Assembly: GCF_964355755.1 (NCBI RefSeq) | Contig: NC_092670.1 | Location: 24,601,795-24,665,794 of the forward strand | Length of the DNA: 64,000 nucleotides | Source of the DNA: Antedon mediterranea | Lineage: Eukaryota > Echinodermata > Crinoidea > Comatulida > Antedonidae | Reading direction: 5' to 3' | In this document: one piece after another, positions 4,242-49,103 of the stretch | Layout of the letters: the number at the start of each line of letters is the position of its first letter | Numbering within the stretch: the first letter of the stretch is position 1 | Program-made: the position numbers and the translations under genes | The notes under the pieces: model-generated | What the model saw: the letters and a program-made list of their open reading frames with translations, nothing else | The model's database searches: none | What the model was told of the DNA's origin: nothing

Positions 4242-4680
4242 GTTGCTAATTGGAAGTGATCTATAATATTGGAAGAAGACCAGTAGAATTACTTGTTTTT
4301 TTATCACATGATTAAAAACTATTTATGCTTCTTGTCTTTACTCATACAAAATAATATAACGGTCGCTTATGGGAAGTGTCTTAAAGTAAAGTGATCTATA
4401 ATAATATATAAGAGGACCAGTACAATTAGGCCTACTTGTTTTTTTATCACATGATTATAAATTATTTATTCTTCTTGTCTTTATTCATACAAAATAATAT
4501 AATGGTGGCTAATTGGAAGTGTTTAAACTAAAGTGATCTTTAACTGGAAGAGGACCAGTATAATTACTTATTTTTATCACATGATTATTATTATATTATT
4601 ATTTTATTCTTCTTGTCTTTATTCATACCAAATAAAATAATGGTCGCTAATTGAATGTGTTTTAAAATAGACCTGAAATG
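4242..4680. repeat. Tandem repeat, about 3.3 copies of a 119-142 bp unit
   Basis: Copies begin near 4242, 4361, 4503 and 4641 (partial). Each starts with a GGTNGCTAATTGGAAGTG-like word and contains GAGGACCAGTA, TTTTTATCACATGATTA and CTTCTTGTCTTTA. The second copy carries an extra AGGCCT at 4428-4433 that the first and third lack. Confidence 0.85.
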
Positions 4681-5269
4681 GATTTTCGATTTTCAAGAAA
4701 TTCACACATGTTATTTAAATGTATCAAATTAACACAAACCCATACAAATAAAAACAAAATGTATAGTATTTTGAGTAAAAACGAAATTTTAAGATACCAT
4801 GGTAAATTAGCGAAAATTACTCACGCCATTGCAATATTCTATTTCAACGGCCGTCGGAAGCCCCTATATTCACGACGTCACATATACACACACACACGAT
4901 GATCGAGAGCGTGCATGCCGCCCGATAGTCAGTGAATGATCGACGGCCTGGAAAGATACCCGAAGCGTTGACACTAATACTAATTTATTCAATATCTAAT
5001 GTTGTTGAAATATAGGTCCCTAAAATGTACTTCGTTTGTTCTAAAACCCGAATTTAGAAGGCCTACCTCCCAAACCTTTACTAGGCCTAACTAGGCTAGG
5101 CCCCCAATCCAGCGCGCGGAGTCGATCCACTACCCACATCATGCGCGGCGAGGCTCCGTTTCATGTGCATCCAAGGACCAAAGCGATATCAACAACTTGC
5201 TGCGCTCATTGTCAAGCCAAAGTAAAATATGAATAAAATTCGTTTTCGAACTGCCTGATTCGTGACAAA
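4681..5269. other. No gene seen
   Basis: There is no supported ORF or repeat here. A short cluster of AGGCCTA words lies at about 5060-5102, followed by a modestly GC-rich stretch to 5165. Confidence 0.5.
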
Positions 5270-5277
5270 TAAATTAT
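5270..5277. repeat. Left target site duplication TAAATTAT
   Basis: This 8-bp direct repeat directly abuts the left end GGCGCTAATG of the foldback element. Its partner is at 11814-11821. Confidence 0.9.
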
Positions 5278-5494
5278 GGCGCTAATGCAGTTTCGTACCC
5301 ACCCCTTAAAATTACTCAAAATGATTTCAATACTTCATCTAGCCTACTCACGAGTTGTCTACAGCATTCAGCAAGCATAAAATGGTAAAATATCGATAAT
5401 TTCTTATTTATAACTATTTTTAATCAATTAATAATTGAGCACCCTTCAGAAATCCATCGCCAGCTTAGCTTCGCGAAAATCATCGCTAGGCCTA

Positions 5495-6583
5495 CCGATG
5501 AAAGTACGGAGGCCTCATAGGGCATCGATCTATAGAGGACGCTGTTATGATCATATTATGGCGATAATAAAATATTTTTTACATGTTCCTCGTGAAACGG
5601 ATTTTAAGTTTTTTTCATAAAGAAATATTTTGTGTTTAATTATGTTGTTAATGTTTATTTTGAATGTTGTGTGTTATTGTCTTGTCAAATTATATTTTTT
5701 TGTAAGGGTCCCTAATGATCAGCTTCGGCTGGATGGACCACCCTCATAAAATATTGTTGAAATAAATTAATGAATAGTTGCTTCATTATTTAATGTTTTA
5801 TTTGATTTTATTTTAATAAACACAACATGAAAGAAGATAAAAAAGAAGAAATGAAAGACATGAAATGATGTATTCAGTGTCAGCAGAAGTAAAATAAATT
5901 CTAGTAATTGATGGAAAACATTTATTATAATTATTGTATTACTGTACATTACATTTCAATAAATTATATCTTTCTGTTTTTGTTGCATTTCCTATTTCCA
6001 TGTATTTGAAGAGGTCTTTCATAGGTGAATAAAAAATGTTAATTAATAATAATATACTTCTATAAAATCTTAAAACAGGGAAACCATTAGCGTTTCTAGT
6101 ATAGCTAGTGATAACAAATACTAAAACAATTAATTCGTCATAGCTTGATTATTGTGTTATAACATTAACAATGTAACTCAGGAATGAAGTACTGTAATTC
6201 TTTTTAATCATTTCATTTATTTATTTGACCTACAAACCATAATGTAAAATAAACTTTTAAACAGAGGAAAATTGCCAGGTCAGTACTTATATCTTCAAGA
6301 GTCAGCAGTTCCATATTTATCTTCTTTTCTGTGTGAAATTTTACTAGTAAAATGAAAGAACAAATTAAAAACATAACATAATTATGATGATACCCACAAT
6401 GATGAATACAGCAATTGTATAGTATTTCTTTTTCTTTATTAAAAATACGAAACGCATGTCGGAAATAATGAAAATTATAATTATTTGGTGCGTGCTTTAA
6501 ACGTTAGTAACTACGCCCTCTATAGAACGCAACTGTTTACTCTATTAATAGAGTTAATGTCCTGTGAGGCCTCCGAACTTTTA
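5495..6583. mobile_element. Nested insertion in the left arm of the foldback element
   Basis: The right arm runs from CATCGCTAGGCC straight into TATATA...ACTGGCGAGTAA, but the left arm has about 1.09 kb between the equivalent points. The inserted block has imperfect inverted ends, with CGGAGGCCTCA near 5510-5520 and TGAGGCCTCCG near 6564-6574. It contains a LINE-like 3' tail in plus orientation near 5690-5785 with GGGTCCCTAATGATCAGC and CACCCTCATAAAATA words before an AATAAAT-rich end. Confidence 0.55.
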
Positions 6584-6975
6584 TCATATATCCAATACCA
6601 AATTGGCGAGTAAATCATGTTTTACTTTAAATTAAATTTATACGCTCTTCCACAAGGTCAATTGTTAGTTATACATACAGACTATATTAAAACAATGATT
6701 TTGAACACGTAGGGCATTTCTTTGAATTCTTTCCTATTGTCGTTTTGTGGTAATTTACAGCTTTTTATATGTTTAACAAACGTACATAATCAATTGCGTC
6801 TGCATCATGCTAGACTACAACTTCCGGTAGTGACGTAATCAGCATATTTTTGGTAATAAAACTTTTTCACTAATCTAGGGAATCTTCTGATATCAATATT
6901 CATTAGACCGTACTTTAGTTAGCCAATCAAAATAAACATATAAACAATTTTGCGGCGATGTTGTTGAAGTAAAAT

Positions 6976-8900
6976 ATACTGTGTTTTACAATAACCAATT
7001 TGGTTAGAGTAAAACACAATGATAAAGAATAGGAAACATTTAATAATATGATAAATGTCATTACATAGCAATTTATCACTGTGTTTTACTATAACCAATT
7101 TGGTTAGAGTAAAACACAATGATATAGAATAGGCAACATTTAATAATATGATAAATGACATTTACATAGCAATTTAGCACTGTGTTTTACTATAAACAAT
7201 TTGGTTAAAGCAAAGCAGAATGATAAAGAATAGGAATTTAATAATATGATATATGACATTTACATAGCAATTTAGCACTGTGTTTTACTATAACCAATTT
7301 GGTTAGAGTAAAACACAATGATAAAGAATAGGAAACATTTAATAATATGATATATGACATTCACATAGCAATTTAGCACTGTGTTTTACTATAACCAATT
7401 TGGTTAGAGTAAAACACAATGATATAGAATAGGAAACATTTAATAATTTGATAAATGACATTTACATAGCAATTTAGCACTGTGTTTTACTATAACCAAT
7501 TTGGTTAAAGTAAAACACAATGATAAAGAATAGGAAACACTTAATAATATGATAAATGACATTTACATAGCAATTTAGCACTGTGTTTTACTATAACCAA
7601 TTTGGTTAGAGTAAAACACAATGATAAAGAATAGGAAACATTTAATAATAATGATTATTTACATAGCAATTTAGCACTGTGTTTTACTATAACCAATTTG
7701 GTTATAGTAAAACACAATGATATAGAATAGGAAACATTTAATAATATGATAAATGACATTTACATAGCAATTTATCACTGTGTTTTACTATAACCAATTT
7801 GGTTATGGTAAAGCACAATGATATAGAATAGGAAACATTTAATAATATGATAAATGACATTTACATAGCAATTTAGCACTGTGTTTTACTATAACCAATT
7901 TGGTTAAAGTAAAACATAATGATAAAGAATAGGAAACATTTAATAATTTGATAAATGACATTCACATAGCAATTTAGCACTGTGTTTTACTATAACCAAT
8001 TTGGTTATGGTAAAGCACAATGATATAGAATAGGAAACATTTAATAATATGATAAATGACATTTACATAGCAATTTATCACTGTGTTTTACTATATCCAA
8101 TTTGGTTATGGTAAAGCACAATGATATAGAATAGGAAACATTTAATAATAATGATTATTTACATAGCAATTTAGCACCATGTTTTACTATAACCAATTTG
8201 GTTATGGTAAAGCACAATGATATAGAATAGGAAACATTTAATAACATGATAAATGTCATTACATAGCAATTTAGCACTGTGTTTTACTATAACCAATTTG
8301 GTTAGAGTAAAACACAATGACAAAGAATAGGAAACATTTAATAATAATGATTATTTACATAGCTAGCAATTTAGCACAATGTTTTACTATAACCAATTTG
8401 GTTATGGTAAAGCACAATGATATAGAATAGGAAACATTTAATAATATGATAAATGTCATTACATAGCAATTTAGCACTGTGTTTTACTATAACCAATTTG
8501 GTTAGAGTAAAACACAATGATAAAGAATAGGAAACATTTAATAACATGATAAATGACATTCACATAGAAATTTAGCACTGTGTTTTACTATAACCAATTT
8601 GGTTAGAGTAAAACACAATGATAAAGAATAGGAAACATTTAATAATATGATAAATGACATTTACATAGCAATTTAGCACTGTGTTTTACTATAACCAATT
8701 TGATTAGAGTAAAGCACAATGATAAAGAATAGGAAACATTTAATAATATGATAAATGACATTTACATAGTAATTTATCACTGTGTTTTACTATAACCAAT
8801 TTGGTTAGAGTAAAACACAATGACAAAGAATACGAAACATTTAATAATAATGATTATTTACATAGCTAGCAATTTAGCACAATGTTTTACTATTTACATT
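6976..8900. repeat. Left satellite array, about 19 copies of a 101-bp monomer
   Basis: The word TTAGCACTGTGTTTTAC recurs at 7272, 7373, 7474 and 7575, giving a 101-bp period; a few copies have small deletions. Each monomer holds an almost perfect palindrome centred on AACCAATTTGGTT with arms GTGTTTTACTATAACCAA. Open frames of 60-80 codons here are products of the repeat, not genes. Confidence 0.95.
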
Positions 8901-9147
8901 TATACTTACATTTTAACTATGATAAATGATATTTAGCACTGTGCTGGATACAGTAAAACACAAATAAAGAATAGGAAACATATAATAATATGATACATTT
9001 ACATACAAATTTAGTATTGTGTTTTACTATAGCCAATTTGGTTACAGTAAAACACAATGATAATGAAACATTTATTATATGATATTATTTACATAGCAAA
9101 ATATTATATTAAACATATCTTATTATCTAAACGTTATGAAAAGAATA

Positions 9148-10310
9148 GGATACATATAATGTAATAATATAATAAATACAAGTTACATAGTTTATCATCT
9201 TGTTTTACAGAACCAATTTGGTGACACAGTTAACACAGTGATAAAGAATAGATACTGTTTTAGGTTATATAACCCTAACCCTAGTTTGAAGCGACATAAT
9301 AAATTCATCGCGAAAAAGTACGTATCGTATTTAGAAACTTTTGAAATTTGTTAGATATGTTTAATAGGTTCTTACGTCTATAAAACAAACAAAAAATATA
9401 AATTTCACAAAAAAATTCGTGATTTTAATAATTTGCATTTCTAAAAATGTACACTTATGAAATACCATACATTTTCCAACACATTTTTACTTCATTGATG
9501 ATTCCCAGAAATCAAAATAAAACAAATTATGATATTTCTTTTACATTATAGATGTAAGAACCTATATTGAACATGTACCAAATTTCAAACGTTTTTTAAG
9601 ACGATACATATTTTTATCGATGAATTAAGTATGTGATCGCTTCAAACTAGGGTTAGGGTTAAATAACCTAACAGTTCCATTCTTTAACACTGTGTTTAAC
9701 TTTTAACCAAATTGGTTTTAGTACAACACAATGATAAACTATGTACATTTTATTTTTCATATTACATTATAGGATACATATAATGTAATAATAATAAATA
9801 CAAGTTACATAGTTTATCATCTTGTTTTACAGAACCAATTTGGTTACACAGTTAAACACAGTGATAAAGAATAGACACTGTTTTAGGTTATATAACTCTA
9901 ACCCTAGTTTGAAGCGATCACATACTTAATTCATCGCGAAAAAATACGTATCGTATTCAGAAACATTTGAAATTTGGTAAATATGTTCAATAGGTTCTTA
10001 CGTCTATAAAACAAACAAAAAATAAAAGTTTCAAGCCAATTTCTTGATTTTAATAATTTGCATTTCTAAACATTTACACTTATGAAAGACAATACATTTC
10101 CAACACATTTTTACTTCATTGATGATTCTCAGAAATCAAAATAAAACTATTAGGATATTTCTTTTGCATTATAGATGTAAGAACCTATATTGAACATATC
10201 TACCAAATATCAAACGTTTTTCAAGACGATACGTATTTTTAGCGATGAATATTAAATATGTGATCGCTTCAAACTAGGGTTAGGGTTAAATAAACTAAAA
10301 CAGTTCTATT
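9148..10310. repeat. Two direct copies of a 624-bp unit, each an imperfect foldback
   Basis: The word GGATACATATAATGTAATAA starts at 9148 and 9772, a 624-bp period. In each copy the left part from CCCTAACCCTAGTTTGAAGC (about 9281 and 9898) is mirrored by the right part ending CTTCAAACTAGGGTTAGGG (about 9638-9658 and 10265-10285), with arms of roughly 115 bp around an AT-rich core. Together the two units form the spacer between the inverted satellite arrays. Confidence 0.85.
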
Positions 10311-10324
10311 CTTTATCACTCACT

Positions 10325-11392
10325 GTGTTTAACTTTTAACCAAATTGGTTATAGTAAAACACAGTGATAAATTGCTATGTAAATGTAATTTATCATGTTA
10401 TTAAATGTTTCCTATTCTTTATCGTTGAGTTTTACTCTAATCAAATTGGTTATAGTAAAACACAGTGCTAATTAAATTGCTATGTAAATGTTATATATCA
10501 TATTATTAAATGTTTCCTATTCTTTATCATTGTGCTTTACTCTAACCAAATTGGTTATAGTAAAACACAGTGCTAAATTGCTACGTAAATGTCATTTATC
10601 ATGTTATTAAATGTTTCTTATTCTTTATCATTGTGTTTTACTCTAACCAAATTGGTTATAGTAAAACACAGTGATAAATTGCTATGTAAATGTAATTTAT
10701 CATATTATTAAATGTTTCCTATTCTTTATCATTGTGTTTTACTCTAACCAAATTGGTTATAGTAAAACACAGTGATAAATTGCTATGTAAATGTAATTTA
10801 TCATGTTATTAAATGTTTCCTATTCTTTATCGTTGTGTTTTACTCTAATCAAATTGGTTATAGTAAAACACAGTGCTAAATTGCTATGTAAATGTTATAT
10901 ATCATATTATTAAATGTTTCCTATTCTTTATCATTGTGTTTTACTCTAATCTGATTGGTTATAGTAAAACACAGTGCTAAATTGCTATGTGAATGTCATT
11001 TATCATGTTATTAAATGTTTCCCATTCTTTATCATTGTGCTTTACTCTTACCAAATTGGTTATAGTAAAACACAGTGCTAAATTGCTAAATGTCATTTAT
11101 CATGTTATTAAATGTTTCTTATTCTTTATCATTGTGTTTTACTCTAACCAAATTGGTTATAGTAAAACACAGTGCTAAATTGCTATGTAAATGTAATTTA
11201 TCATATTATTAAATGTTTCCTATTCTTTATCATTGTGTTTTACTCTAACCAAATTGGTTATAATTTATTTAATTTCATTGCAAAAGACATTTACCTAAAT
11301 TGCTATTTAAATGTCATTTATCAAATTATTAAATGTTTCCTATTATTTATCTGGTTATATAGTAAAACACTGTGCTAAATTGCTATTGTATT
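10325..11392. repeat. Right satellite array, about 10.5 copies of the 101-bp monomer, inverted
   Basis: The same monomer as at 6976-8900 appears as its reverse complement, for example TGCTATGTAAATGTCATTTA followed by the ACCAAATTGGTT hairpin. The last unit, at about 11260-11392, is degenerate and fades into non-repeat arm sequence. ORFs at 10993-11575 are repeat-derived. Confidence 0.95.
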
Positions 11393-11813
11393 AAGGACGA
11401 GTTCCGAGAAGATGTATTCAAAGCTACAACCAATCAGAACAGTGTTAATCAATATAGTCCATGGCTAAAGCCAATCAGAAACGTCCAAATCGCAATAACC
11501 CCTAGGCTAATAGAAATTATTGGTCCGAGTAGCCTTTTCAACCAGACGTTGCGAGGTTTAAAAAGTAAAACATGATTTACTCGCCAGTTTGGTATAGTTT
11601 ATATACCTGGGCCTAGCGATGATTTTCGCGAAGCTAAGCTGGCGATGTATTTCCGAAGGGTGCTCAGTATTAATTGATTAAAAATAGTTTTAAATAAAAA
11701 ATTATCGATTTTTTACAATTTTATGATTGCAGAATGTTGTAGACAACTCGTGAGTAGGTTGGATGAAGATTTTGAGTAATTTTAAGGGGTGGGTACGAAA
11801 CTGCATTAGCGCC

Positions 11814-11821
11814 TAAATTAT
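11814..11821. repeat. Right target site duplication TAAATTAT
   Basis: This is an exact match to 5270-5277, immediately after the right end CATTAGCGCC of the foldback element. Confidence 0.9.
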
Positions 11822-13729
11822 CATCTCATATTACTAATTTAATTCTGCTAAACTAAACACACACATTTTAGCAGTATAAATTACGAACGATACAAAATAC
11901 ACAAACGGAAAATATGGATACGCATCATTGCGCACGGAGCTGTATCCCGGACAACGTTGCCAGGCCAACTTCGGTATTGCCAGAAAAAAAACCGTTGATT
12001 TTAAATCGTCATTTACTCGATAAATAACCGTTTATACGGTAATAATTTTATCTAAAAAAATTCTAAATACGTTTCTGCAAATGCACAAGCATTTTTTAGA
12101 AAATACTCCATAGATTTCAAGAGTTATAGCCAAAAAACTGCAAATTGTCCATTGGAGGGATAGGAATATATTCGCAAAGTGACGTCACCCGCGAATTTTT
12201 TTGATTTTCAAATAGGGCTTTCCCCAAAAGGGCCAATTTATATTTTGTAACAATATACATTCTATCAACACCTAATAGCCCCCAAAACATCATTCTAAAA
12301 TGAAAAAAATCGAAAATCCATTTCAGGTCCATTTTAAGCGAATATCTTTGAAAAATAAAAAGTAGTTTAATTGACATTATTAACAATAGTTGTCCGTTAA
12401 AGTGCATGCGCGATCGCGATCAAAACCTGAATCTCAAATCTCAACCACGGACGGTATTCAATCCATGGGTCAGACATTATTAACCCATTGACCCCTAAGT
12501 TTATTTTGCTCCCCTGGGACCCAAAAAGCATATGTCATATAATTAACCCTAACTTTTTTTCTAAACACAGACATTAAAAAAATTAAAAAACAAAAATAAT
12601 GCAAAGGACATTTTATTTCCAAATATGTTATCAAATTTGTGTTACAACTTATTTTGGCGGAGTATGGATTATGCAAATTTTAGAAATATTTTAGGAAAAT
12701 TATTAAAAATTTGTAATTTATCTTTGACTACCAAATGCACAAAAATTAATAAATATTTCATAATAAAACTCATCTCTTCATCAGAACCTATTTCTTCTCT
12801 TCAAAATAAGACCAAACTTGACCATTATGAATGACCGGTTTCGAAATTATGAAGAAATTAGTAGACTGACTCATCCGACGATGACCATATGGGGCCTAGG
12901 CCTATCGGGAGCCGCCCCGAGAGCGTCCTCGCCGCTGTTTGTTCACCGGGAATGTTAAAAAAAACATCCCGAAAGCGACTTGGAATTCGCGATTCCCACG
13001 CGCACCGGCATCCCTCGGGAGCTTAGTCCGCTGTTTTAGACGTGTAGCTTGCAGAAAATTTGACGAAAATGCGTCGAAAACTTATGAAATTAAAACAAGT
13101 TTGGTATCAAAATGTTTGTCAAAAGTTATGCTTCAATAAACTGACCTTTGCGCAGAGTTTGAACAAATATTTCATGCCCATAATGCATCTGACATGTCAG
13201 GGTTCATATTACAATCAAAGGTAAACAATATGGCGCGGCCCTTGTGAGGACATCTTCACGACTTTTCTCCGGTAGAAAAATCACATTTTTACATGGAAAT
13301 ATGACGATTTAGACACTGTAACTGATACATAATCTTTATTTATTATACATTTATTGTATACAAGCTTCAAAATAGTGATTATTAGAAATAAAGATGGATT
13401 TTAGACGATTTTACGTTGTATGTCTAGGCCTAGATTCATTCAACGCGCCTGTCGCGTTTCGAACAGCGTGCTTCGAAAAACGGTTATATTTTCGAATTTT
13501 ATTTTCAAACTAACTTCAACAATTGTTTTTATATATTTAGAAGCATATTTTTTAAAAAAAAGTTGTGAGTATTTTGTATAATTTGTTGTTACGATTCATG
13601 CACAGCAAACTGCGCATGTAAATTCGATTTACTTTTTTTTTGTTGAAAATTTGTTTACAATGACCTTGACTTTTAACCTTTTGAGCGCTTTAAGCGCTTA
13701 TCGTGGTGAATCGGTTAAACGGGCCGGAC
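11822..13729. other. No gene seen
   Basis: I find no exon-like frame with splice sites and no terminal inverted repeat. The stretch mixes AT-rich sequence with GC-rich patches near 12880-13030 and 13430-13470. A palindromic AGCGCTTTAAGCGCT word lies at 13684-13698. Confidence 0.45.
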
Positions 13730-14668: not shown

Positions 14669-14677
14669 GGGCCGGAC

Positions 14678-15132
14678 AGCATTAAATTGTTGGAAAACGC
14701 CCGCGAACCTGTTAAAACATGCAACTGGACACTATCCAATGCTGAAAAGTGTCCATCCGGACAGACACATCAATCAATCTTACACCGGAACGAACCGCGG
14801 CCGGAGTACTTGGTCTGTATTTCTCTAGCCAGTCCACGAGCTACACACTACAGCATGAGGGCAGGAACTCTGTTTATTACGTGTTTCCGCAAGCGTAATT
14901 TTTTTTTCCAGGACGAACGTGGGCAGAAACCATGAATAATTCATGATTAATTATGACATAATAGGGAACATTATAGAGGGCGCACGCTTTCCGCAACACA
15001 CTTCCCGCTGCAATCATTTTGGGCCGGGTGATCGATCTTCTAAAAGAAAAATACGATATTGATCAATCACAAAATTATTGTTGGTTGATACGAAGCGAGG
15101 CGCGCGTAAGTGTAGTGTGTGTGCGTTTGAAA
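14678..15132 (+). promoter_or_regulatory. CPPED1 upstream region, core promoter not identified
   Basis: This is the segment between the MULE-like element and the CPPED1 start. No TATA box or initiator stands out. The bases just before the ATG, from about 15080, are moderately CpG-rich and probably include the 5' UTR. Confidence 0.3.
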
Positions 15133-18100
15133 ATGGCTTCAGATCCTTCATCTTTACGTCGTGCGAGCGAAAGAGTTATTTGTAATTTACAAAAAGGTGA
15201 GAAGTTAAACTAGGCCTATTAGGCCTAGCCTATATCTATATAAATACTAGCCCCATTACATGGTAGGCCTAAGCCTAGACCTACTGCTAACTAGTACTAG
15301 CTAGGCCTAGTTAGCTAGCCCTGCCAGTATAGGTCCGGGCCCCTAAACTATGAGGCTAGAGTATAGGCCTAGTAGTAGGCCTAGGCTAGCCTAAATTGTA
15401 GGTCTCCTTCTAGCATATCCTAGTAGCTAGCTATCTTTACCTTTTTGGTACTACCTCTACTCTAGCTAGCCTAGTCTCTACTAGGTCCTACTTTTTTAGG
15501 GAGACCCTGGCTACAGTAGTCTGGGCGGAGTATGGTCGAAGCGGCCGCCAAGCAAAGCGGCCGCCAGTTACATACAGCTGTATGTATGGTCAAACCAATA
15601 AATATAAGCCAAATCGTGAACTATCGAATCTTTATATTTCTATAAAAATTAAGTTTGCCGATAAATTAATGTATATTTTATTTGTATTTTAATACTGTAT
15701 TAACTAACTAAATATATTTACATATACTATCGAATCATTAATAATTTACGTTTGTATCATAATCTACGTACTATTGAACCTTTATATCTCATTTACTATT
15801 ATTTATTTATATCTCTTTTTTTTAATATTGGCAGTGAAGGGAAAAAATAACGTTGAACTAACCCGACGTTTCTCGAGCACTCTCCTATTGAATCTTTATA
15901 CATACGTATTGCATTAATAATTTACGTACGGTATTGCCGAATCTTTATATCTCATTTACATACTATCGAAACTTTATACTGTACAGTATTGCAATAATTT
16001 ACGTACGGTATTGCCGAATCTTATATCTCGTTTACTTTACTCTCGAATCTTCATACAGTATTGCAATAATTTACGTACGGTATTGCCGAATCTTTATATC
16101 TCATTTACATACTATTGAATCTTCATACAGTATTGCAATAATAATTTACGTACGGTATTGCCGAATCTTTATATCTCGTTTACTTTACTATCGAATCTTC
16201 ATACAGTATTGCAATAATGATTTACGTACGGTATTGCCGAATCTTTATATCTCGTTTACTTTACTATCGAATCTTCATACAGCAGTATTGCAATAATTTA
16301 CGTACGGTATTGCCGAATATTTATATCTCGTTTACTTTACTATCGAATCTTCATACAGTATTGCAATAATAATTTACGTACGGTATTGCCGAAACTTTAT
16401 ATCTCGTTTACTTTACTATCGAATCTTTATACAGTATTGCAATACTAATTTACGTACGGTATTGCCGAATCTTTATATCTCGTTTACTTTACTATCGAAT
16501 CTTCATACAGTATTGCAATAATAATTTACGTACGGTATTGCCGAATCTTTATATCTCGTTTACTTTACTATCGAATCTTTATACAGTATTGCAATACTAA
16601 TTTACGTACGGTATTGCCAAATCTTTATATCTCATTTAGGCCTACATACTATCAAATCTTCATACAGTATTGCAATAATAATTAACGTACGGTATTGCCG
16701 AATCTTTATATCTCATTTACAATGTGTACTATCGAATCTTGTTTTTTTATTGATTAGTAATAGGGTGTGTTATACATTAAGTGTTATTCCATTGTAATAC
16801 ATTGTTTGTGTTTTCAATAAAGCAACATGGGGACGAAAACGCGACCTTCTACAGCCGGCCGTGTAGTTATTAGCAGAAATTCGCGTAATTAATTACCGTA
16901 CCGTACAGACACTTGCATCTTATTTTAGTATTTAAAACTCATTTTAAATTGATCAATATTTATATCTGAAGGTATAAAATAATTTAGGATATTAAATAAA
17001 TGAATTGATGTCATCATGTTATTGTAATTATTATGATTGCGAACACTACTACAGTAGTTACTTTACTAATTAATTAATATACAATAACAAATATATATAT
17101 TTTGATATAATTTATTGAAAATATATATACATTATTCTTAATAATTGGCTTATTATATATTATATTAATATACAATACAAACACCACAATGTATTTTATT
17201 GACTTTATTAAACATATCATTTAGAACAGTTAAAGTAAGTAATCATCGATTCGCCATTTCGTTTAAAAGAACGTATCACATTCAATCTGTAAAAAAAGAG
17301 AATAAATTACATAATAATTTAGATTGTTATTTACGTCCGAGGTAAAGAAAACCTGTCGAAACAATGACAATCAAAGATTACAAAACAACGACAATCAAAG
17401 CGCACACGGCGTTCCATACAAATTACCGTTATTGAACTAGCGGCCGCTTTGGTTGGCGGCCGCTTCGACCGTAATCCGTCTGGGCTGCGGAACTTTGAAA
17501 CACATGACATACCACTACGGCCTAGGCTAGCTAGGCCTATAGGGCCTATCAATCAAGTATTTCTGTATCTGACCAGTCTTATAAACATTTTATAGTTTGT
17601 ATTTTTTTTTTATATTTCAGATGATGAAGGTGAATGGAATGGAAACTTTTGCTTCATCCAAGCAGCTGATACACAGTATGGAATGATTAACAGCTATGTA
17701 GATCGTGGAGACGGTAGTAAATGGGATAAGGAACGAAAGCTTACCAGACGAGCCATAGATGCAGCCAATAACATGCATCCTAAGCCAAAGTTTTTTATTG
17801 TCTGTGGTGATCTAGTTGATTCATTTCCAGGTAAAGCATGTCATACAACTTATAATTTAAGTTTATTTATATTTTGTGAGTGGAAAAGCTTTTTTATTGA
17901 ACAGAGTTGTGAATGCGATCCCTCCAGCATTTCTAGATAGAAGACACTTGATATCTCTAGAGTGTCTTCTGCTGTTAATGTGAAAGAGGTATAATTGCAT
18001 TGGTGCAGATAAGTACTTTACTAATACAATGACACAAAAAAAAAGATTAGAGGAATTTCTTATTAAAAAATAAATATATTAATCTACCTTAATTAATTTC

Positions 18101-20830: not shown

Positions 20831-22406
20831 GTATTAAGTTTTGATGTAATATATGTATTAGCCAAAGTTCATATTTACCTAAAATGTTTATTTTTTTTAA
20901 TTTTTCTAATATTTCTTACCTTCCATAATTGTGCAAATGACTTCTATTACAATGCATATTTACAGTGTAATCATTTTCACTGCATTAAAAAAAAAGGAGT
21001 GGTAATTTGGGTAAATGCACACAAAAAAAATGGATTTATTAGGACAGATCCACGATGGGCACACTTTACAGTCATGTGACCCTAATTCCTAATTTTCAGG
21101 AAAAATTTATGAAATATATTAAGCTATTATAATAATAACTATTGATATTAACAGAGCTTTCTTGTTTTATTGTTTGAACATATTACGTTTAAGGAAAACA
21201 GTACTAAATAACAATAGTGTAGCCTTTTGTTTATTTCCAATAATATTCGAGTAGCTAAAATCTTGTAATAGTTAAATTATGCTGCTCATTTTACTTGTAT
21301 ATATTGTTTTCAGCGTGAGATTATAAAGAAAAAAACTGTATAGTATTGGAGAGAGTATATATCTAGTTTTAGTCTTGTTAGATGTTTATATTGGAGTATG
21401 TTAATATATATATATCTAAACCATCTAAATTTCTATTATCTCAGGGTTTTATATTATGTCATAGCATTTCTATGCAAATGTAAATGGTAGATCCGAATTT
21501 AAAATTTCTATTGTTTATTTGGAAATATAAACCACTTTTTAAAAATTGCTTATTTCACAATGCTCTTTTTCTTTACCGCCAACGGAAAAAAGTGGGGTTA
21601 TTATCAATGTTTATGCTTTATGGTAAACAATAGAAACTTTATCCCCGGAGCTGCCCTTTAAAGTAGAACATTTTATTATTAATGTGTTTAAGAATTATAA
21701 ATTGTATTATACCATATTATCCACTGAAGCATAGTTGTAAATGTATGTTTAATGTTTAGTCAATGCAATACGCGGTGCTACTGTACTTTCGCACTCAATC
21801 TCGCAAGATTGTCCCAATTTTAAAATATTTACACGCTGCGCAGCGGTGACAGTGAGTGACTGTGCAGTCTTATGCCCGGTTAGGTGCGAAATTACAAAAG
21901 AGCCCAATACGCTGGATCGGTAGGCGTCAACAATTAGTTTTGAGTAATAGTAATAGTAATACAACCAAAGTGCCTCATTAAAATTGCCTTTGTTGGTAGT
22001 AATGTTCAATTATTGTGCTTTCATAACTGTATGGTGTTTATATTTTACTATCAAGAAGTAGTAGGCCTATACTACTGTTGTTCACACTAACTGTACAGTA
22101 CGTATTTGTCACTGGACCTAAAATATCAAGTGTGGTTGTTTACTTCTAATTCCTTTTTTTTTTTATTATGTTTTCTTTGATTTCCCTTATTTATGTTTTC
22201 TTTGATTTCCCTTATTTATGTTTTTCTTTTCTTATTTATTTTTTCTGATTTATTTACATTTTTTTTATATTTTGTCTATTGAAACCCATTCACTTATTTT
22301 ATTCGCTTTATAATATTATAAACATTATTTTTGTAAGGTTTGTCTAAACGTTTAGAGTATTCTAAAAACAATCTGAAATAGTCCACTTTAGAATATTATT
22401 TCATAC
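20831..22406. other. CPPED1 3' flank, no further gene seen
   Basis: The CPPED1 3' UTR should start here, but I could not find a convincing AATAAA close to the stop. The rest is AT-rich, with homopolymer runs and a short duplicated TTTCTTTGATTTCCCTTATT near 22170-22225. Confidence 0.4.
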
Positions 22407-22640
22407 AATAACAATGCATTGTAACGTAAGGAACGTATTCATTTAAATATAAGATAGTTTAAACATTTTTACAATTATTCTTTTTTATTTCTTTTACTGT
22501 GCAAACCAAAAAATACAAGTTTTGAAATTTATAATAATAGACATATTTTTTCTTTATTACTTTACTTTTTGTATAATGTTATTTTATGCTAATAAATCAA
22601 AGACAAAACATGTATCTAATAAGACAATTCGTCTGGGTCT

Positions 22641-23335
22641 AAAGCGTGGTTCCCACAAGAACGCAACGCATCGACGTATTGACGTAAAGTGATGTATTGC
22701 GTAAAGCTTGGTTTCCACTAGCGACGCAACGTAAGAAAATATCCTTCTAATAATTGTGTTTGCCCCCGCCTGCGTGAAATCAAACCAAATCATTCTTGTG
22801 TCTTCGGTTCCCACTTTTGATCACGCAATACATCACTTTGCGTCAATACGTCGCTGCGTTGCGTTCTAGTGGGAACCACGCTTAATTAAGTGTGAACCGA
22901 CAACGCAATAATGCTGCAAACATCGCAGGTTTGATTTCGCGCAGGCGGGGGCAAACACAATTATTGGAAGGGCATTTTCTTACGTTGCGTAAGTTGCGTT
23001 ACGTTGTGTCGCTAGTGGGAACCAAGTTTAAGCGGCGCTTCATAAGCCCGGGGAGGACGTGCACATAATCCCGTTCATACAAAAGTTCTGCTTCTGTGAC
23101 GTATCGACGCAAATGGCTGTATGGCGTAATCACAAGTGGGAACCGACGACGCAACAGTGCAGCAAAAATCACAGGTTTGATTTCACGCAGGCGGGGGGGC
23201 AAACACAATTACTGGAAGGGCATTTTCTCACGTTGTGTAGGTTGCGTTACGTTTCTTTGCTAGTGAGAACGCAATACATCACTTTGCGTCAATACGTCGC
23301 TGCGTTGCGTTCTAGTGGGAACCACGCTTTAAAGA
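22641..23335. mobile_element. Cluster of palindromic MITEs (copy 1)
   Basis: The termini are AAGCGTGGTTCCCAC and GTGGGAACCACGCTT, with internal ACGCAACG, GTATTGACG and GCAATACATCACTTTGCG words in both orientations. A first unit runs 22641-22883; further units follow to 23335, each carrying GCCCCCGCCTGCGTGAAAT or its reverse complement. Small frames here are shadows of the repeat. Confidence 0.75.
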
Positions 23336-23684
23336 ATAGATCCTCAAACAACTTTGTACTGGTTTCTGCTACGTTGCATTGCCCAGCTTGCTTGAAATGT
23401 CTGTTCCGATTTTATAATAATTTTGTACCAACAGGATGTCCATTTCATACAATAACAATGCATTGTAACGTAAGGAACGTATTCATTTAAATATAAGATA
23501 GTTTAAACATTTTTACAATTATTCTTTTTTATTTCTTTTACTGTGCAAACCAAAAAATACAAGTTTTGAAATTTATAATAATAGACATATTTTTTCTTTA
23601 TTACTTTACTTTTTGTATAATGTTATTTTATGCTAATAAATCAAAGACAAAACATGTATCTAATAAGACAATTCGTCTGGGTCT

Positions 23685-24674
23685 AAAGCGTGGTTCCCAC
23701 AAGAACGCAACGCATCGACGTATTGACGTAAAGTGATGTATTGCGTAAAGCTTGGTTTCCACTAGCGACGCAACGTAAGAAAATATCCTTCTAATAATTG
23801 TGTTTGCCCCCGCCTGCGTGAAATCAAACCAAATCATTCTTGTGTCTTCGGTTCCCACTTTTGATCACGCAATACATCACTTTGCGTCAATACGTCGCTG
23901 CGTTGCGTTCTAGTGGGAACCACGCTTAATTAAGTGTGAACCGACAACGCAATAATGCTGCAAACATCGCAGGTTTGATTTCGCGCAGGCGGGGGCAAAC
24001 ACAATTATTGGAAGGGCATTTTCTTACGTTGCGTAAGTTGCGTTACGTTGTGTCGCTAGTGGGAACCAAGTTTAAGCGGCGCTTCATAAGCCCGGGGAGG
24101 ACGTGCACATAATCCCGTTCATACAAAAGTTCTGCTTCTGACAAGTGAGCAAATGCACCCATTTTCTACTTCCAACCGTTTCAAAACAAGGGACCTGGCG
24201 AGCATAAAGCGTGGTTCACACTAGCGACGCAACGCAACATACGTAACGTAAGAAAATGCCCTTCCGATAATTGTGTTTGCCCCCGCCTGCCTGAAATAAA
24301 ATCTGCGATATTTGCAGCATTGTTGCGTCGTCGGTTCCCACTTGTGAATACGCAATACAGCACTTTGCGTCAAAACGTCGCTACGTTGCGTCGCTAGTGG
24401 GAACCACGCTTTAAGCGTGGTTCCCACTTAAACGTAACGCAGTGACGTATCGACGCAAATGGCTGTATGGCGTAATCACAAGTGGGAACCGACGACGCAA
24501 CAGTGCAGCAAAAATCACAGGTTTGATTTCACGCAGGCGGGGGGGCAAACACAATTACTGGAAGGGCATTTTCTCACGTTGTGTAGGTTGCGTTACGTTT
24601 CTTTGCTAGTGAGAACGCAATACATCACTTTGCGTCAATACGTCGCTGCGTTGCGTTCTAGTGGGAACCACGCT
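23685..24674. mobile_element. Cluster of palindromic MITEs (copy 2), with one unit absent from copy 1
   Basis: The family is the same as at 22641-23335. A complete 206-base unit lies at about 24209-24415, from AAAGCGTGGTTCACACTAGC to GCTAGTGGGAACCACGCTTT, and another at about 24413-24674. The first of these falls wholly within the 304 bases missing from copy 1; the second crosses the edge of that gap. Confidence 0.75.
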
Positions 24675-24788
24675 TTAAAGAATAGATCCTCAAACAACTT
24701 TGTACTGGTTTCTGCTACGTTGCATTGCCCAGCTTGCTTGAAATGTCTGTTCCGATTTTATAATAATTTTGTACCAACAGGATGTCCA

Positions 24789-26096: not shown

Positions 26097-29705
<3,609 letters not shown>

Positions 29706-29890
29706 GACCTAAACACCACCGCTAGCCACTCATATTAATTGGGGTGAAATTCTTTGAGAAAATATGGAAAGACAGCGCTTCCCTAATTTAGAGATGTTTG
29801 CAAGTGGTAATGTAAGCCGTCAGAAGTACACGGGTGGCGCGCTTTGCCTGTTCCTACGGCGAGCATTCCATTACCAAATAAGGAGAGACA
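29706..29890 (-). promoter_or_regulatory. Actin promoter with CArG boxes
   Basis: A perfect CArG box, CCAAATAAGG, lies at 29873-29882, about 170 bases upstream of the inferred start. Near-matches are CCTAATTTAG at 29782-29791 and CCATATTTTC (minus strand) at about 29767-29758. CArG boxes bind serum response factor, the known regulator of actin genes, so this placement supports the promoter call. Confidence 0.6.
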
Positions 29891-32800
29891 CTAATGTAGC
29901 GTTGGCCTGGCAACAACATCATATTAGCCCCACCTCTTAACTGGTTTCACGAATCTCTCATAAGTATTACAACCGGTTGACTTAAAATGGGAATAAGAAG
30001 GAGGAGAAATAATTACAAGACGCAATGAAATCATTGAATATGTATGAGGACTGGATAAACTCGTGAAGGTGAGATACCATCAACACGATAATACAGAAGC
30101 GGTTGGCCTAGGTTTATTTAATTACATTACTATAAAAAGGCCTGTAGGTCTTCTCATTTTAGAGCTAAGTTTTAAAACACAGTTTTGTGATTACGAAAGA
30201 ATTTTTTACTTAAATTATTAGGCCTAAATGAGAGCAATCACATGATAATCTGACAACGTTGAGAACCTCAGAACTTTCATGATTAATAACACTATCTAAA
30301 TTATTAATTAATAAAACGACCCATTTGTTATATTGTTTCGGTATAACGTTTATCAATCAATAAAGAATATAGATATATGACCTAACAGTACTTTTTACAA
30401 ATTCATTAAATTATAATTATTTAAGTATTTACGCTTATTTATATTAAACTTATTTTAATCATCAAAATGATTCAAATGATTAAACTAATTTAGATATAAG
30501 AAAGAAATCTTTAATAAGGATTTATATAATAAATGAAAAATAGAAGGCTGCGGATAAGGGTAGAGAAATAGAAACGATTTTTGTTTTGAAAAAAAAAGAA
30601 GAACTCAAAGGGGCATCCAGCAACTTTTGATGCTGATATGTTGTGAAGGTCTCGTATATTTTTAGCCTTGTGTAAATATTTTGGAATAAAGTAGTTATAC
30701 GAATTAATAAGTCCGGTTTAATTTCTAATAATTACCTTAAAATGTTTATAAATTATTGATATTAGCATTAATAATCAACAGCATCAGTAGGGCTTTCATT
30801 ATTATCATCATTTTTTATTTATTTTTATTCATTTCAGTAATACAAAAAGGAAAAGCATGTACCAACATATATGGGCTGTACACAAAAATCATCGAACAAA
30901 ATCCATATTTAAAAAAAAAAAACACTATCAGTACATGCTAATTATAATAACATTTTTACAACATGATGCTTATTTTAAATCTGGAGCAATGTGGGTATAG
31001 GTGACTTTACTTTCTGTATCTTTGAATCTTAAATTCCAAGCATAGGCCTAATTGTTATTTATGGTAATCATAATTTTTTTTTTATTATTACTATTATTAT
31101 TATTGTTATCATAATGGTCATTATTATCATCACAATTGTCTTTACCACCACCATATCTCATCATCATTATCATCACCATATACCACATTATCAACAACTT
31201 AATTTTACTCACTCAATAATTAGGCCTCGTAATGCCTAATGATATTTAGTTTTATTTTTTGAATGAATTGCTAGCTTATTAAATACAATTATACAATAAT
31301 ATGTATTCTCAGAAGACATATGCCTAATATTATCTTTAATCTTTCCTTTCCTATTCGCGTGCTGTGTTATTTATTGCCAAAAAAGTCATAATGTTTTACG
31401 ACCAACGAATGTTATGAAAATGAACTTATAGTATTAAGCGTGAACTGAAATTATGTCATCCAATGAAATTATGGCAATGTCAGTAGGCTCCATATTGAGT
31501 TTGAGGTCACTGTATCCAAGGCCATGTCACAATTTGACAAAAGTAGGAGGAGTTATGGTGGCCTAACCCATGTTAATGGAACACACGGGGACACTGTATA
31601 AATAACCATTTATGGATGCGTTGATATAGTTAAGCCAAAGTTTGTCGCCCGGACTTTAATTGGAGCGTAACCGATGAGAGGTTATGTAAAATTGGTATAC
31701 ATGCTAAAAGTAGGCCTAATGTAATGGAATGTAGCAACTATGTCCATCAAGAACCAAAAAGTGTTTTATTATATTATTTAGAACGATGAGTTTGTTTGTG
31801 GATAGTGTTCTGGCTATTAAAACTACGACGGAGAATTGCAATGTATTTTTTTACGCGTATGAACGTGTATTATTACCTTGGATCGGGCAGTTTGTTTATT
31901 CTGTCATTTTGGTCTGTTATCAGTCATATCTTCATACCCGGCCCATGTAATAGGTGATGCTGGGGTTGATTAGCGCAAATCAATGATTGTAAGACATAAA
32001 GTTAGCCACTCATCATCCATGTATTTGTATGTTTTTGTTTGTGCACGGCCCCAGGGAAAAACAACCATGTTGATCTGGACCTCCGTGATAAAATAATGTA
32101 GAATTTAATTGAATAGGCCTACACTGTGTAGGCCTAATTGTAACAGCAATTACATCTAAACAAATTATTATTTTTATTAAATATTTATCGTATAACTTGA
32201 TGGCCTCATTACATTATCATTACATGTATGTCTGGTGTTCCGATATCAAGTTTTGTGGGACAATAGGCCTGTAGGCCTACTACTACCACTAAAGTTCGTG
32301 TGTTCAGGTAGGCCTATCTTGTTTTTCCCCGCCACATTTTATCTGTAAGGTTGTGGGTAACTCACCAACAAACCCGGGTATAACTAAGAAGCAACATTAC
32401 TGTGATATACTTTTATAGCTCCCTGTACTAACTGATGAACGTAGTTTTAGGCCTAATGATAAATAGTCGACATTCCGACAGTTTATGATTCACACAAATT
32501 CCCCGTAATATTGCACTGATATTAGTCAATGTTAATTGCATGTCGTATGCCGAAGTTTTCGCGATAGAATGAATCACGCAGTTTTTTTAGGCACATAGGC
32601 TTAAACATAGAGATATTATAGTTATATATAATATCTCTATGGCCAGAATAAAAGCTTGGAGCTCGATATTCTCGCCACAAATAGGCCTTGTTTTATCATC
32701 CGTAAATATGATTATTCTGTCTGCAGTTTTGACGCCATACACTGAACTGTTTACAAGCGTTCTTTGCTGATGAAAAGCATACTTTTGTACGCGCACGTTT

Positions 32801-33517
32801 AATGTTTTTTTCGTTTCATACCGTAACACCCGGCATAGCACCACATATGATTTCAGGTCATTCCCATTAGATTACAATTGAAGTGTTACCGGAAATGCAT
32901 TATTTGGAGTGTTTTGTACTTCCGATTTACGTACCACAAAATCCATACGATGATGGAGACGATTTAAATTAAGTAAATCGAATAATAACAATAGGCCTAT
33001 ATAACAGAATAATTTACTGTATTGTATTATCTGGTTTTTGTTTGTTTGAATGTTATAAATCATTAATGTTGTGTGTCTCTATTCGTCAGCTGTTATTGAT
33101 TGGCTCCTATGAATATTATGCATTTCATCTTTATGTCTTTAGAAATAATGTATACAAACCATTGTCTTATTTGGTTTTTTTTCTTTTGTGTTTTCGTCCC
33201 ACTTTTCTACTTTTAAAATACATTTACAAGATATCAATCATAAACAACAGTGAATGTATTGACAGACATAGAACATTTTTATTTTCTACATGTCATTATT
33301 TCAAATCAACTATAGATAGGCCTTAAGAAAGCGTGCCAAATTCGGTATTGGCATAATGAGATATAGTGAATGTTTTTTTGTTTCTAGTGAGTCGATCGTG
33401 ACACCCCTAGAAAGCACGAAGATTATTTTTTATCCCATGATGATATTTCTTTCTCTTTCTTTCTCTTATTATTTATACTATTTGTATTCTATCTGTATTA
33501 AATACAAACATTGTTTT
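29891..33517. other. Intergenic, no gene seen
   Basis: The segment is AT-rich with scattered TAGGCCTA words (for example about 31045, 31711, 32115, 32132, 32275, 32450 and 32991). It has a TTA/ATC triplet-rich patch at 31080-31200 and a perfect hairpin at 32606-32641. Long frames around 33042-33562 are T-rich without splice signals or known motifs. Confidence 0.5.
32606..32641. repeat. Perfect 15-bp hairpin
   Basis: The arms CATAGAGATATTATA and TATAATATCTCTATG flank a 6-base loop, GTTATA. It may be a MITE remnant or chance in AT-rich DNA. Confidence 0.5.
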
Positions 33518-33690
33518 CCAGTTCATAATGATAGGGACGAGTCGACTTCTCTAAGCCATTAATTATTAATAAATTCCAGTTCATAATGATAGGGACGAGT
33601 CGATTTCTCTAAGGCATTAATTATTAATAAATTCCAGTTCATAATGATAGGGACGAGTCGACTTTTCTAAGTCATTAATTTATTAATAAA
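33518..33690. repeat. Tandem repeat, 3 copies of a 58-bp unit
   Basis: Copies start at 33518, 33576 and 33634 with CCAGTTCATAATGATAGGGA, followed by CGAGTCGA and a TTAATTATTAATAAATT tail. The copies differ at only a few bases. Confidence 0.95.
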
Positions 33691-33721
33691 ATGATCATAT
33701 GAAAAGTGATTATATAGGCCT

Positions 33722-34300
33722 ACAATATTAAATGTATGCATGGGCCAATTATTGTTTCTGAATAGAGATAACAATGTAGTTACCAGCCCTGCAATGCTGG
33801 ATATTGTCAAATTTATTAACAAAATGATCAAATGGCCGAGCGGTTAAGGCAGGGGCGCCGTTTACCGTACCGGTACATAAGAGCCAACAACATCGGCAAG
33901 GGTTCGAGGCCGACTTGCTCCTAGTTCTGGTGGTTGAACAAGTCTTCTCGGATAAGGACTATAACCGTAGGTCCAGTGTACACAGTTATAACCTGTATGC
34001 ACTTTAAAGAACCCAGTTCATTATTCGAAAAAGAGTAGGGGGTTACCCCGGTGAACTGGTTCACAAAATAGCTCCTGTATCAGGGGGATTACCACCTATC
34101 TGATAGGACAGTGATTAATTCACTATTGGTAATCCTTGGCCGCATTGCCTAAAGACATAAAATAAAATAAAAAATAAATAAAAATATGCAGAGTTATGAA
34201 CAAAGAACAAACAATTAAAATATTAAATGTATGCATTGGCCAATTATTGTTTCTGAATAGATATAACAATGTAATTGGGCCTTGCAATGCTGGATAATAT
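33722..34300. repeat. About 85-bp direct duplication flanking the SINE
   Basis: AATATTAAATGTATGCAT, then GGCCAATTATTGTTTCTGAA, and CCTTGCAATGCTGGATA or its close match, occur at about 33726-33810 and 34220-34303, an offset near 495 bases, on both sides of the SINE. A shorter echo lies at 34360-34390. Confidence 0.7.
33829..34175 (+). mobile_element. tRNA-derived SINE
   Basis: The head has a Leu/Ser-type tRNA box A, TGGCCGAGCGGTTAAGGC (33832-33849), and a box B, GGTTCGAGGCC (33900-33910), about 50 bases apart as a pol III promoter needs. A body of roughly 230 bases follows, with GGTCCAGTGTACACAGTTAT and CTTTAAAGAACCCAG, and the copy ends in an ATAAAATAAA-type tail at about 34147-34172. The body resembles conserved SINE cores of marine deuterostomes, but I could not check the family. 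Confidence 0.8.
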
Positions 34301-34396
34301 CAATATCATTAATAACATTATCATGTCGTAATATCGGGAGTTGTGAACAAACAATTAAACAAATATTAAATGTAGGTCTATAAATGCATGCATTTG

Positions 34397-34715
34397 AAAA
34401 ATACTATTACTTAAGTGCTATTTCTTTATGTCATTTTATATCAATCTCACAATAACAGTATGATATTGTTTAATATGCCTTCGTGCAAACAAAATACTAT
34501 TACTTAAGTGCTATTTCTTTGTGTCATTTTATATCAATCTCACAATAACAGTATGATAGGCCTATTGTTTAATAGGCATTACGTCCAAACAAAATACTAT
34601 TACTTAAGTCCTATTTCTTTGTGTCATTTTATATCAATCTCACAATAACAGTATGTATTGTTTAATAGGCATTACGTGCAAACAAAATACTATCATAGTC
34701 TATAGGCCTACTTTG
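34397..34715. repeat. Tandem repeat, about 3.3 copies of a 93-100 bp unit
   Basis: AAAATACTATTACTTAAGT or its start recurs at 34397, 34491, 34591 and 34684 (partial). Each full unit contains ATTTCTTTGTGTCATTTTAT and CTCACAATAACAGTATG. The second copy is longer by an AGGCCT hexamer at 34558-34563. Confidence 0.9.
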
Positions 34716-49096: not shown

Positions 49097-49103
49097 ATAC
49101 TAT

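What the first reader, a model, noticed from the sequence alone, without database searches (positions are those of the whole stretch)
4427..34564. TAGGCCTA behaves as a discrete insertion at TA, like a transposon excision footprint
In three unrelated tandem arrays one copy has TAGGCCTA where sister copies have TA: 4427-4434 (sisters near 4290 and 4563 read AATTACTT), 16637-16644 (sisters at 15949 and 16098 read ATTTACATAC) and 34557-34564 (sister near 34463 reads GATATTG). In each the change is TA to TA-GGCC-TA, a 4-bp insert with TA duplication. Tc1/mariner-type elements duplicate TA and leave a few terminal bases on excision, so an element ending GG...CC would leave this footprint. The word occurs dozens of times here (for example 5085, 13431, 14355, 27929, 31045, 32132, 55204, 59724), so such a process would have marked the whole genome. 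A replication or repair process that adds GGCC at TA is the other option.
Basis: partly seen in the sequence, partly recalled or inferred. Interest (0 to 1): 0.8.

Follow-up and report, generated by a model that had tools for sequence, protein, structure and literature searches.

The report
TAGGCCTA: footprint-like insertions at TA
An eight-letter palindrome, TAGGCCTA, is scattered about 129,000 times through this eukaryotic genome, and sister copies of repeats show it arising by a precise six-base insertion at TA, the kind of scar left when a TA-loving jumping gene hops out, although the jumping gene itself was not found.

Summary
TAGGCCTA occurs 44 times in the window (0.52 expected) and 128,596 times in the 354-Mb genome (reversed control word: 1,587). 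At the three named array sites sisters read TA where one unit reads TAGGCCTA. Paralogues gave two more independent cases, array L150 and transposon copy L047: five exact gains. They belong to a wider spectrum. Of 56 distinct non-tandem 4-8-bp insertions in six repeat sets, 22 duplicate TA (null means 5.4 and 6.0; 0 of 2,000 shuffles as high), with inner letters such as CTG, CAG, CTC, GCC, CATG and GGCC. A stricter set gives 10 of 34. Motif positions in repeat families change at the neutral rate. Best reading: excision footprints of TA-specific cut-and-paste (Tc1/mariner-type) transposons, the dominant one with GG...CC or GGC...GCC ends. Against it: no such element was identified, few transposase matches were found, and TAGGTA/TACCTA are not enriched. 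A TA-specific repair or insertion process is the main rival. Some copies lie in TAGGC-rich clusters that grow by small duplications.

The parts
4427..4434 (.). TAGGCCTA inserted at TA in the middle unit of a 3-unit array
   Evidence: sisters read ATTACTT; exact 6-bp gap
4254..4662 (+). 143-bp tandem array holding the 4427 insertion
   Evidence: TRF, 3.0 copies, 79% matches
16637..16644 (.). TAGGCCTA inserted at TA in one unit of a 76-bp array; shared by four near-identical arrays elsewhere (L114-L117), absent from the other 35 arrays fetched
15901..16740 (+). 76-bp tandem array (about 11 units); array family used to read the insertion spectrum
   Evidence: TRF; genome matches; insertion spectrum
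15977..15983 (+). TACTGTA, a second footprint-like insertion (TA to TACTGTA) in the same array
   Evidence: could instead be a diverged duplication of the adjacent TACAG
34557..34564 (.). TAGGCCTA inserted at TA in the middle unit of a 93-bp array
34398..34693 (+). 93-bp tandem array holding the 34557 insertion; the genome search returned only this place
   Evidence: TRF, genome search
54351..56006 (+). copy of repeat family B (about 1.65 kb, about 43-bp terminal inverted repeats); carries TAGGCCTA at 54836 and 55204, places shared with other copies; family member L047 carries a private TA to TAGGCCTA insertion
4662..5277 (+). truncated copy of repeat family A (about 1.14-kb element with inverted ends); carries TAGGCCTA at 5082, a place shared with other copies
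15211..15383 (.). cluster of six TAGGCCTA with TAGGC/GCTAG-type sequence around them; secondary multiplication likely (inference)
13425..13432 (.). example of an isolated TAGGCCTA without related words within 40 bp (37 of 65 sites in the masked sample are of this kind)

Best explanation
TAGGCCTA is created by a recurrent, sequence-specific insertion event at TA dinucleotides: TA becomes TA-GGCC-TA (shown, five independent cases). The most likely cause is excision of TA-targeting cut-and-paste transposons of the Tc1/mariner/pogo type (inferred). Such an element inserts at TA and duplicates it; on excision the staggered cuts leave 2-3 terminal nucleotides on each flank, which repair joins between the two TAs. 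An element with ends 5'-GG...CC-3' cut 2 nt inside gives TA-GG-CC-TA after fill-in. An element with ends 5'-GGC...GCC-3' cut 3 nt inside gives TAGGCCTA when the overhangs pair through the 2-bp GC, and TAGGCTA or TAGCCTA when they pair over 3 positions with a central mismatch; both of these words are also in excess. Other elements with CAG...CTG ends would give TACAGTA/TACTGTA, likewise in excess and likewise seen as insertions. Once made, the octamer drifts neutrally. Some copies then multiply with repeat families or inside TAGGC-rich clusters.
For: Excess of the exact octamer, window, sample and genome. Five independent TA to TAGGCCTA insertions with empty-TA sisters: 4427, 16637 and 34557; L150, 1 filled against 436 empty exact units; L047 in dispersed family B, where five sisters of its subfamily (L041, L042, L044, L045, L046) read TTTACTGATG. 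Among 67 TA-GGCC-TA sites in window plus sample, 3 have an empty-site paralogue, against 4 of 1,362 other TA-N4-TA sites left after excluding the microsatellite-like words ATAA and TATA (Fisher p = 0.003). Insertion spectrum: 22 of 56 distinct non-tandem insertions duplicate TA (next AC 7, AA 6); 11 have 3-4-nt inner words containing G or C (CTG x4, CAG, CTC, GCC, CATG, CAGG, GGCC x2), against null means of 1.7 and 2.0; 0 of 2,000 in both nulls. Excluding inserts within one mismatch of a neighbouring segment leaves 10 of 34 with TA duplicated (null means 1.8 and 2.2; 0 and 1 of 2,000 as high) and 7 with such inner words (0.9 and 1.0; 0 of 2,000). Word counts in 134 kb: the top TA-N3-TA words are CAG/CTG (5.4-fold) and GGC/GCC (4.7-fold). 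Motif positions change as fast as the rest in families A and B: 10 of 1,024 against 800 of 90,239. The genome holds Tc1-like (8 matches; an uninterrupted 340-aa ORF in L175) and pogo-like (47 matches) transposase domains; one pogo-like locus has CAG-ended inverted repeats flanked by TA. Published mechanism: Sleeping Beauty cuts 3 nt inside (PMC7827188, passages), ISY100 2 nt inside (PMC2170065, passages), and Tc1/mariner footprints are 2-4 bp (PMC7913693, passage).
Against: No element with TA-GG...CC-TA ends was established; the only candidate (45755-47380, GGAAGGAGGGG ends) is a single palindrome with no second copy in the fetched sequence and an uncertain boundary. Six of seven transposase loci fetched showed no clear TA-flanked inverted repeats. 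128,596 copies is far more than the transposase matches found, though such match counts are lower bounds. TAGGTA and TACCTA are not enriched. The overhang model's other prediction, TACCGGTA, is weak genome-wide (6,792 against 4,686 control). Isolated sites show no AT-rich palindromic target beyond TA. No new TAGGCCTA insertion was seen in the aligned parts of families A (40 copies) and C (39), or in 13 arrays of the 101-bp satellite. The L047 event lies about 40 bp from inherited TAGGCCTA copies, so a local source cannot be excluded there. Twelve of the 22 TA-duplicating inserts are within one mismatch of a neighbouring segment.
Confidence: 0.6

Rival explanations
1. A host process other than element excision adds GGCC between duplicated TAs: for example a domesticated TA-specific nuclease or transposase, or end-joining that captures or synthesises a self-complementary AGGCCT/GGCC at TA breaks.
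For: One 4-nt product dominates (GGCC 70-fold, next word CCGG 5.6-fold); no source element found; copies greatly outnumber the transposase matches.
Against: The same repeat sets show other TA-framed inserts (CTG, CAG, CTC, GCC, CATG), which fits several transposon families better than one fixed reaction.
Confidence: 0.2
2. TAGGCCTA is a functional binding or chromatin site, created by ordinary mutation and kept by selection.
For: Fewer one-substitution neighbours than expected for old neutral sites: excess of about 34 loci against 65 exact.
Against: New copies appear as exact insertions in satellite units and a transposon copy; motif positions inside families A and B are not conserved (10/1,024 against 800/90,239 substitutions). 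The neighbour deficit is explained as well by recent origin.
Confidence: 0.07
3. Slippage in TAGGC/GCTAG-type cryptically simple sequence makes the word, so it is a by-product of local duplication.
For: 28 of 65 sites have related words within 40 bp, against 18% of random window positions; CTAG, AGGCCT and CTAGG tandem gains are seen in families A and B. Two of the five insertion events have a TAGGCCTA not far off: L047 at about 40 bp and 34557 at 146 bp.
Against: 37 of 65 sites are isolated; the other three events have no TAGGCC or GGCCTA nearer than 363 bp (4427), about 900 bp (16637, counting from 15500-17500) or in the 781-bp locus (L150); none of the five is an exact tandem gain; the run TAGGCCTAGGCCTAGGCC is rare, 264 + 281 strand matches against 128,596 octamers.
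Confidence: 0.13

Closest known systems
Tc1/mariner excision footprints (Sleeping Beauty, ISY100, ZB)
   Same: TA target duplicated; 2-4 nt left between the two TAs; identical letters at unrelated loci; TA-framed 3-nt CAG/CTG inserts also present here
   Different: the dominant 4-nt palindrome GGCC requires GG- or GGC-ended elements, not found here; scale of 363 per Mb
Highly iterated palindromes of cyanobacteria (HIP1, GCGATCGC)
   Same: an octameric palindrome far above expectation across a whole genome (PMC4390886, passages)
   Different: HIP sites are tied to DNA methyltransferases, and the passages seen report no insertion at a fixed dinucleotide; here the word arises by insertion and drifts neutrally
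pogo/Tigger-like elements with CAG ends
   Same: present here (47 DDE_1 matches; L171 with 24-bp CAG-ended inverted repeats next to TA) and able to explain TACAGTA/TACTGTA
   Different: CAG ends cannot give GGCC

Membership tests
Tc1/mariner-type excision footprint | insertion at TA with the TA duplicated | tested here: met
   five TAGGCCTA events; 22 of 56 non-tandem insertions duplicate TA, 0 of 2,000 shuffles as many; strict set 10 of 34
Tc1/mariner-type excision footprint | 2-4 nt between the TAs | tested here: met
   GGCC is 4 nt; 11 of the 22 TA-duplicating inserts have G- or C-bearing inner words of 3-4 nt, others are 2 or 5-6 nt; range from PMC7913693
Tc1/mariner-type excision footprint | letters equal the terminal nucleotides of an element that sits at TA in the same genome | tested here: inconclusive
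   only a CAG-ended pogo-like element was resolved; no GG/GGC-ended one established in 134 kb of sample and seven transposase loci
Tc1/mariner-type excision footprint | transposase of the superfamily in the genome | tested here: met
   8 DDE_3 and 47 DDE_1 matches, an uninterrupted 340-aa Tc1-like ORF
Tc1/mariner-type excision footprint | shortened or altered variants around the main form | tested here: inconclusive
   TAGGCTA/TAGCCTA in excess, one TA-GGGCC-TA gain in family A, but TAGGTA/TACCTA not in excess
Highly iterated palindrome (HIP) | overrepresented palindrome genome-wide | tested here: met
Highly iterated palindrome (HIP) | matching DNA methyltransferase | not tested
Tandem or cryptic simple repeat | copies made by local duplication | tested here: not met
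   37 of 65 sites isolated; the five insertion events are not exact tandem gains; met only for a subset inside clusters

The most novel reading that the evidence does not exclude
A single TA-specific cut-and-rejoin activity, possibly a domesticated or hyperactive transposase with few surviving element copies, has been writing the same 6-bp scar into a eukaryotic genome at roughly one scar per few hundred neutral substitutions. TAGGCCTA has thereby become one of its most over-represented octamers (as judged in the sequence sampled), and each scar is a directional record of the activity.
Probability: 0.3. Interest if true: 0.82.

Novelty: new variant of a known kind. Interest (0 to 1): 0.64.

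Why it matters
Excision scars are normally described one at a time. Here a scar-like word is the most enriched 8-mer of the window by base composition, occurs more than 10^5 times in the genome, and its birth can be read in repeat alignments. If it is a footprint, it counts excision events, which are otherwise invisible, and gives their rate relative to substitution. It would also explain a strong k-mer bias by a known enzymatic mechanism. If it is not a footprint, it is an unknown TA-specific insertion process in a eukaryote.

Tried and rejected
Substitution origin: rejected for the five events with sisters. Inside the TAGGC clusters of families A and B some extra copies arise by small duplications; raw motif positions in L046, L048, L052, L064 and L069 differ from the consensus and I did not resolve each. 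Raw TAGGCCTA at L009 position 1095 and L096 position 412 were taken to lie outside the aligned element. Simple tandem (TAGGCC)n as source: rare.

Selection or maintenance: not supported. A general 3-nt-overhang rule predicting TACCGGTA: 5.6-fold in the sample (six loci) but genome-wide only 6,792 against 4,686, so I do not lean on it. Element ends: scans for TA-flanked inverted repeats gave mostly palindromes and array artefacts. TAGG-starting 14-mers that looked enriched (the four checked) came from one satellite piece, L155. Young families were poor test material. A first reading of the L047 insertion as CTTTAGG was replaced after using the subfamily consensus. In one search the empty-site test also gave, for TA-N3-TA, hits for GCC (2 of 47 sites, both in TAGGC clusters), CAG (2 of 142, one array), AAG (6 of 74) and a few others; I rest nothing on these. 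Species identity: 11 contigs of 22-41 Mb among 18 (lengths shown) and 354 Mb fit none of the four bryozoan genome notes whose size I saw in abstracts (10 of 88 listed); left open.

Literature: ten searches were made. Those on the word, on iterated palindromes or on genome-wide footprints (9, 11, 49, 50, 61, 62, 72, 74) showed, in listings that were capped (for example 40 of 182, 15 of 32), no paper that by title or abstract start describes TAGGCCTA as an iterated eukaryotic word. Only passages of PMC7827188, PMC2170065, PMC4390886 and PMC7913693 were opened. I recall seeing similar TAGGC-type words in fish and echinoderm sequence; that is memory, not a test.

Full report
What was checked. TAGGCCTA occurs 44 times in the 64-kb window, against a mean of 0.52 and a maximum of 3 in 100 dinucleotide shuffles. 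It is the most enriched window 8-mer, by base composition, of those counted at least 10 times. The window lies on contig C1 of an unnamed 354-Mb genome, where the word occurs 128,596 times and the backward-read control 1,587 times. In seven 10-kb pieces taken elsewhere it occurs 24 times in 70 kb, close to the genome density. After masking tandem repeats, window plus pieces (134 kb) hold 65 copies, 70-fold over a first-order model.

The three named insertions are real. In the 143-bp array at 4254-4662, the 76-bp array at 15901-16740 and the 93-bp array at 34398-34693, one unit reads TAGGCCTA where sister units read TA, with matching flanks. The net change is 6 bp.

Polarity and independence. 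I fetched 39 further arrays of the 76-bp family. The 16637 insertion is shared by four near-identical arrays (L114-L117; 97-99% identity) and absent in the other 35. One of those 35, L150, has its own TA to TAGGCCTA insertion at a different place in the unit: one filled against 436 empty exact units. So the filled state is derived twice in this family. In family B (about 1.65-kb elements with inverted ends, 34 copies) L047 alone reads TTTAGGCCTACTGATG where five copies of its 13-copy subfamily (L041, L042, L044, L045, L046) read TTTACTGATG; the other seven differ there. That makes five independent exact events. The aligned parts of families A (40 copies) and C (39 copies) and 13 arrays of a 101-bp satellite showed none. 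These sets are young or homogenised, so few events are expected.

The wider spectrum. I listed all clean 4-8-bp insertions relative to the family or unit consensus in six sets: 36 of 40 A copies, 31 of 34 B copies in two subfamilies, 39 C copies, 40 arrays of 76 bp and 13 of 101 bp. The dropped A and B copies were truncated, poorly aligned or carried large inserts. Insertions with another gap within six columns were also dropped, which removed the 16637 event; the 4427 and 34557 arrays were not in these sets. Of 75 distinct insertions, 56 were not exact tandem duplications. TA is duplicated in 22 of these; the next dinucleotides are AC 7 and AA 6, although AT (295), AA (252) and TA (304) are similarly common in the flanks. 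Permuting the inserted letters, or moving the insert, gives means of 5.4 and 6.0 with no value of 22 in 2,000 runs each. Counting only 3-4-nt inner words with a G or C, 11 are seen against 1.7 and 2.0. The inner words are CTG (4), GGCC (2), CAG, CTC, GCC, CATG and CAGG. Some of these could be diverged duplications of a neighbour such as TACAG. Dropping every insert within one mismatch of a neighbouring segment leaves 34, of which 10 duplicate TA (next AA 3; null means 1.8 and 2.2, reached in 0 and 1 of 2,000 runs) and 7 have such inner words (means 0.9 and 1.0, 0 of 2,000).

The same words stand out in bulk sequence. Of TA-N3-TA words, CAG/CTG (124 loci, 5.4-fold) and GGC/GCC (48 loci, 4.7-fold) lead; of TA-N4-TA words, GGCC does. 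TAGGCTA plus TAGCCTA number 95,494 genome-wide, control 21,652. They look too many to be decay products of TAGGCCTA: 48 loci against 10 expected, an excess of about 38, while all 24 single-substitution neighbours together exceed expectation by about 34. TAGGTA and TACCTA are not in excess. About half of the TAGGCTA loci (26 of 48) lie in TAGGC-type clusters, so clusters add to this count.

Age and constraint. With constant neutral gain and loss, one-substitution neighbours should be about as common as exact copies (my reckoning); here the ratio is about 0.5. Either the process is recent (roughly within 0.2 substitutions per site; my estimate, wide error) or copies are protected. Protection is not seen: motif positions in families A and B changed in 10 of 1,024 cells, other positions in 800 of 90,239. 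The genome density then implies about one insertion per few hundred substitutions (inference); I did not obtain a clean count of independent substitutions in the arrays to test this closely.

Mechanism. Tc1/mariner elements insert at TA and on excision leave 2-4 bp (PMC7913693, passage). Sleeping Beauty cuts three nucleotides inside the ends (PMC7827188, passage) and ISY100 two (PMC2170065, passages). GG...CC ends with 2-nt overhangs, or GGC...GCC ends with 3-nt overhangs paired through GC, both yield TAGGCCTA; the second also yields TAGGCTA/TAGCCTA. This step is inferred. The genome has Tc1-like and pogo-like transposase domains (8 and 47 matches, lower bounds), an uninterrupted Tc1-like reading frame and a pogo-like locus with CAG-ended inverted repeats beside TA, which would explain TACAGTA/TACTGTA. 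The single candidate, 45755-47380, has ends GGAAGGAGGGG next to TA but an uncertain boundary.

What speaks against it. The missing element, the uniformity of the GGCC form, the lack of TAGGTA/TACCTA, the weak TACCGGTA excess and the lack of a target preference beyond TA (slight G excess one base outside isolated sites) leave room for another TA-specific process. The L047 event has inherited TAGGCCTA copies about 40 bp away and 34557 has one 146 bp away, so a local source is not excluded for these two. Part of the 128,596 copies are inherited or multiplied: in the sample they sit at fixed places in families A and B and in clusters (28 of 65 sites).

Verdict. The identity of the element, and whether one exists, is open. 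In the held library, the searches named in Tried and rejected, whose listings were capped, showed no paper on this word as an iterated eukaryotic sequence.

Noticed in passing
window and L153-L159: TACAGTA/TACTGTA is also strongly over-represented (124 loci in 134 kb masked, 5.4-fold; 97 isolated), the form expected from CAG-ended TA elements.
   Followed up: partly
45752-47383: Inverted repeat with 675-bp arms 99.85% identical, ends GGAAGGAGGGG beside TA; a recent foldback-like element and the only GG-ended candidate.
   Followed up: partly
33828-34183: SINE-like repeat: a 5.3-kb query holding it had 2,884 first-look candidates, and 39 of the 42 listed matches other than the window were to this repeat; tRNA-like head by recalled features, no tRNA called by ARAGORN.
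   Followed up: partly
22398-24788: Nested direct and inverted repeats, 699 bp and 347 bp at 100% identity: recent local duplication or an assembly effect.
   Followed up: no
49098-49978: Element with inverted ends that carries TAGGCCTA in opposite arms at 49462 and 49637.
   Followed up: no
L155: Sampled piece with words recurring about every 1.2 kb over most of its length, apparently a satellite, and no TAGGCCTA in 10 kb.
   Followed up: no
L021 (family A copy): A 7-bp gain that turns TA into TA-GGGCC-TA, one base longer than the usual form.
   Followed up: no
window and L153-L159: The octamer TGACGTCA is about 20-fold over a second-order model in the masked sample.
   Followed up: no
L171 151-2906: Pogo-like locus of about 2.76 kb with 24-bp inverted repeats starting CAGTAGAACC after TA and a 550-aa open frame at the transposase match.
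   Followed up: partly
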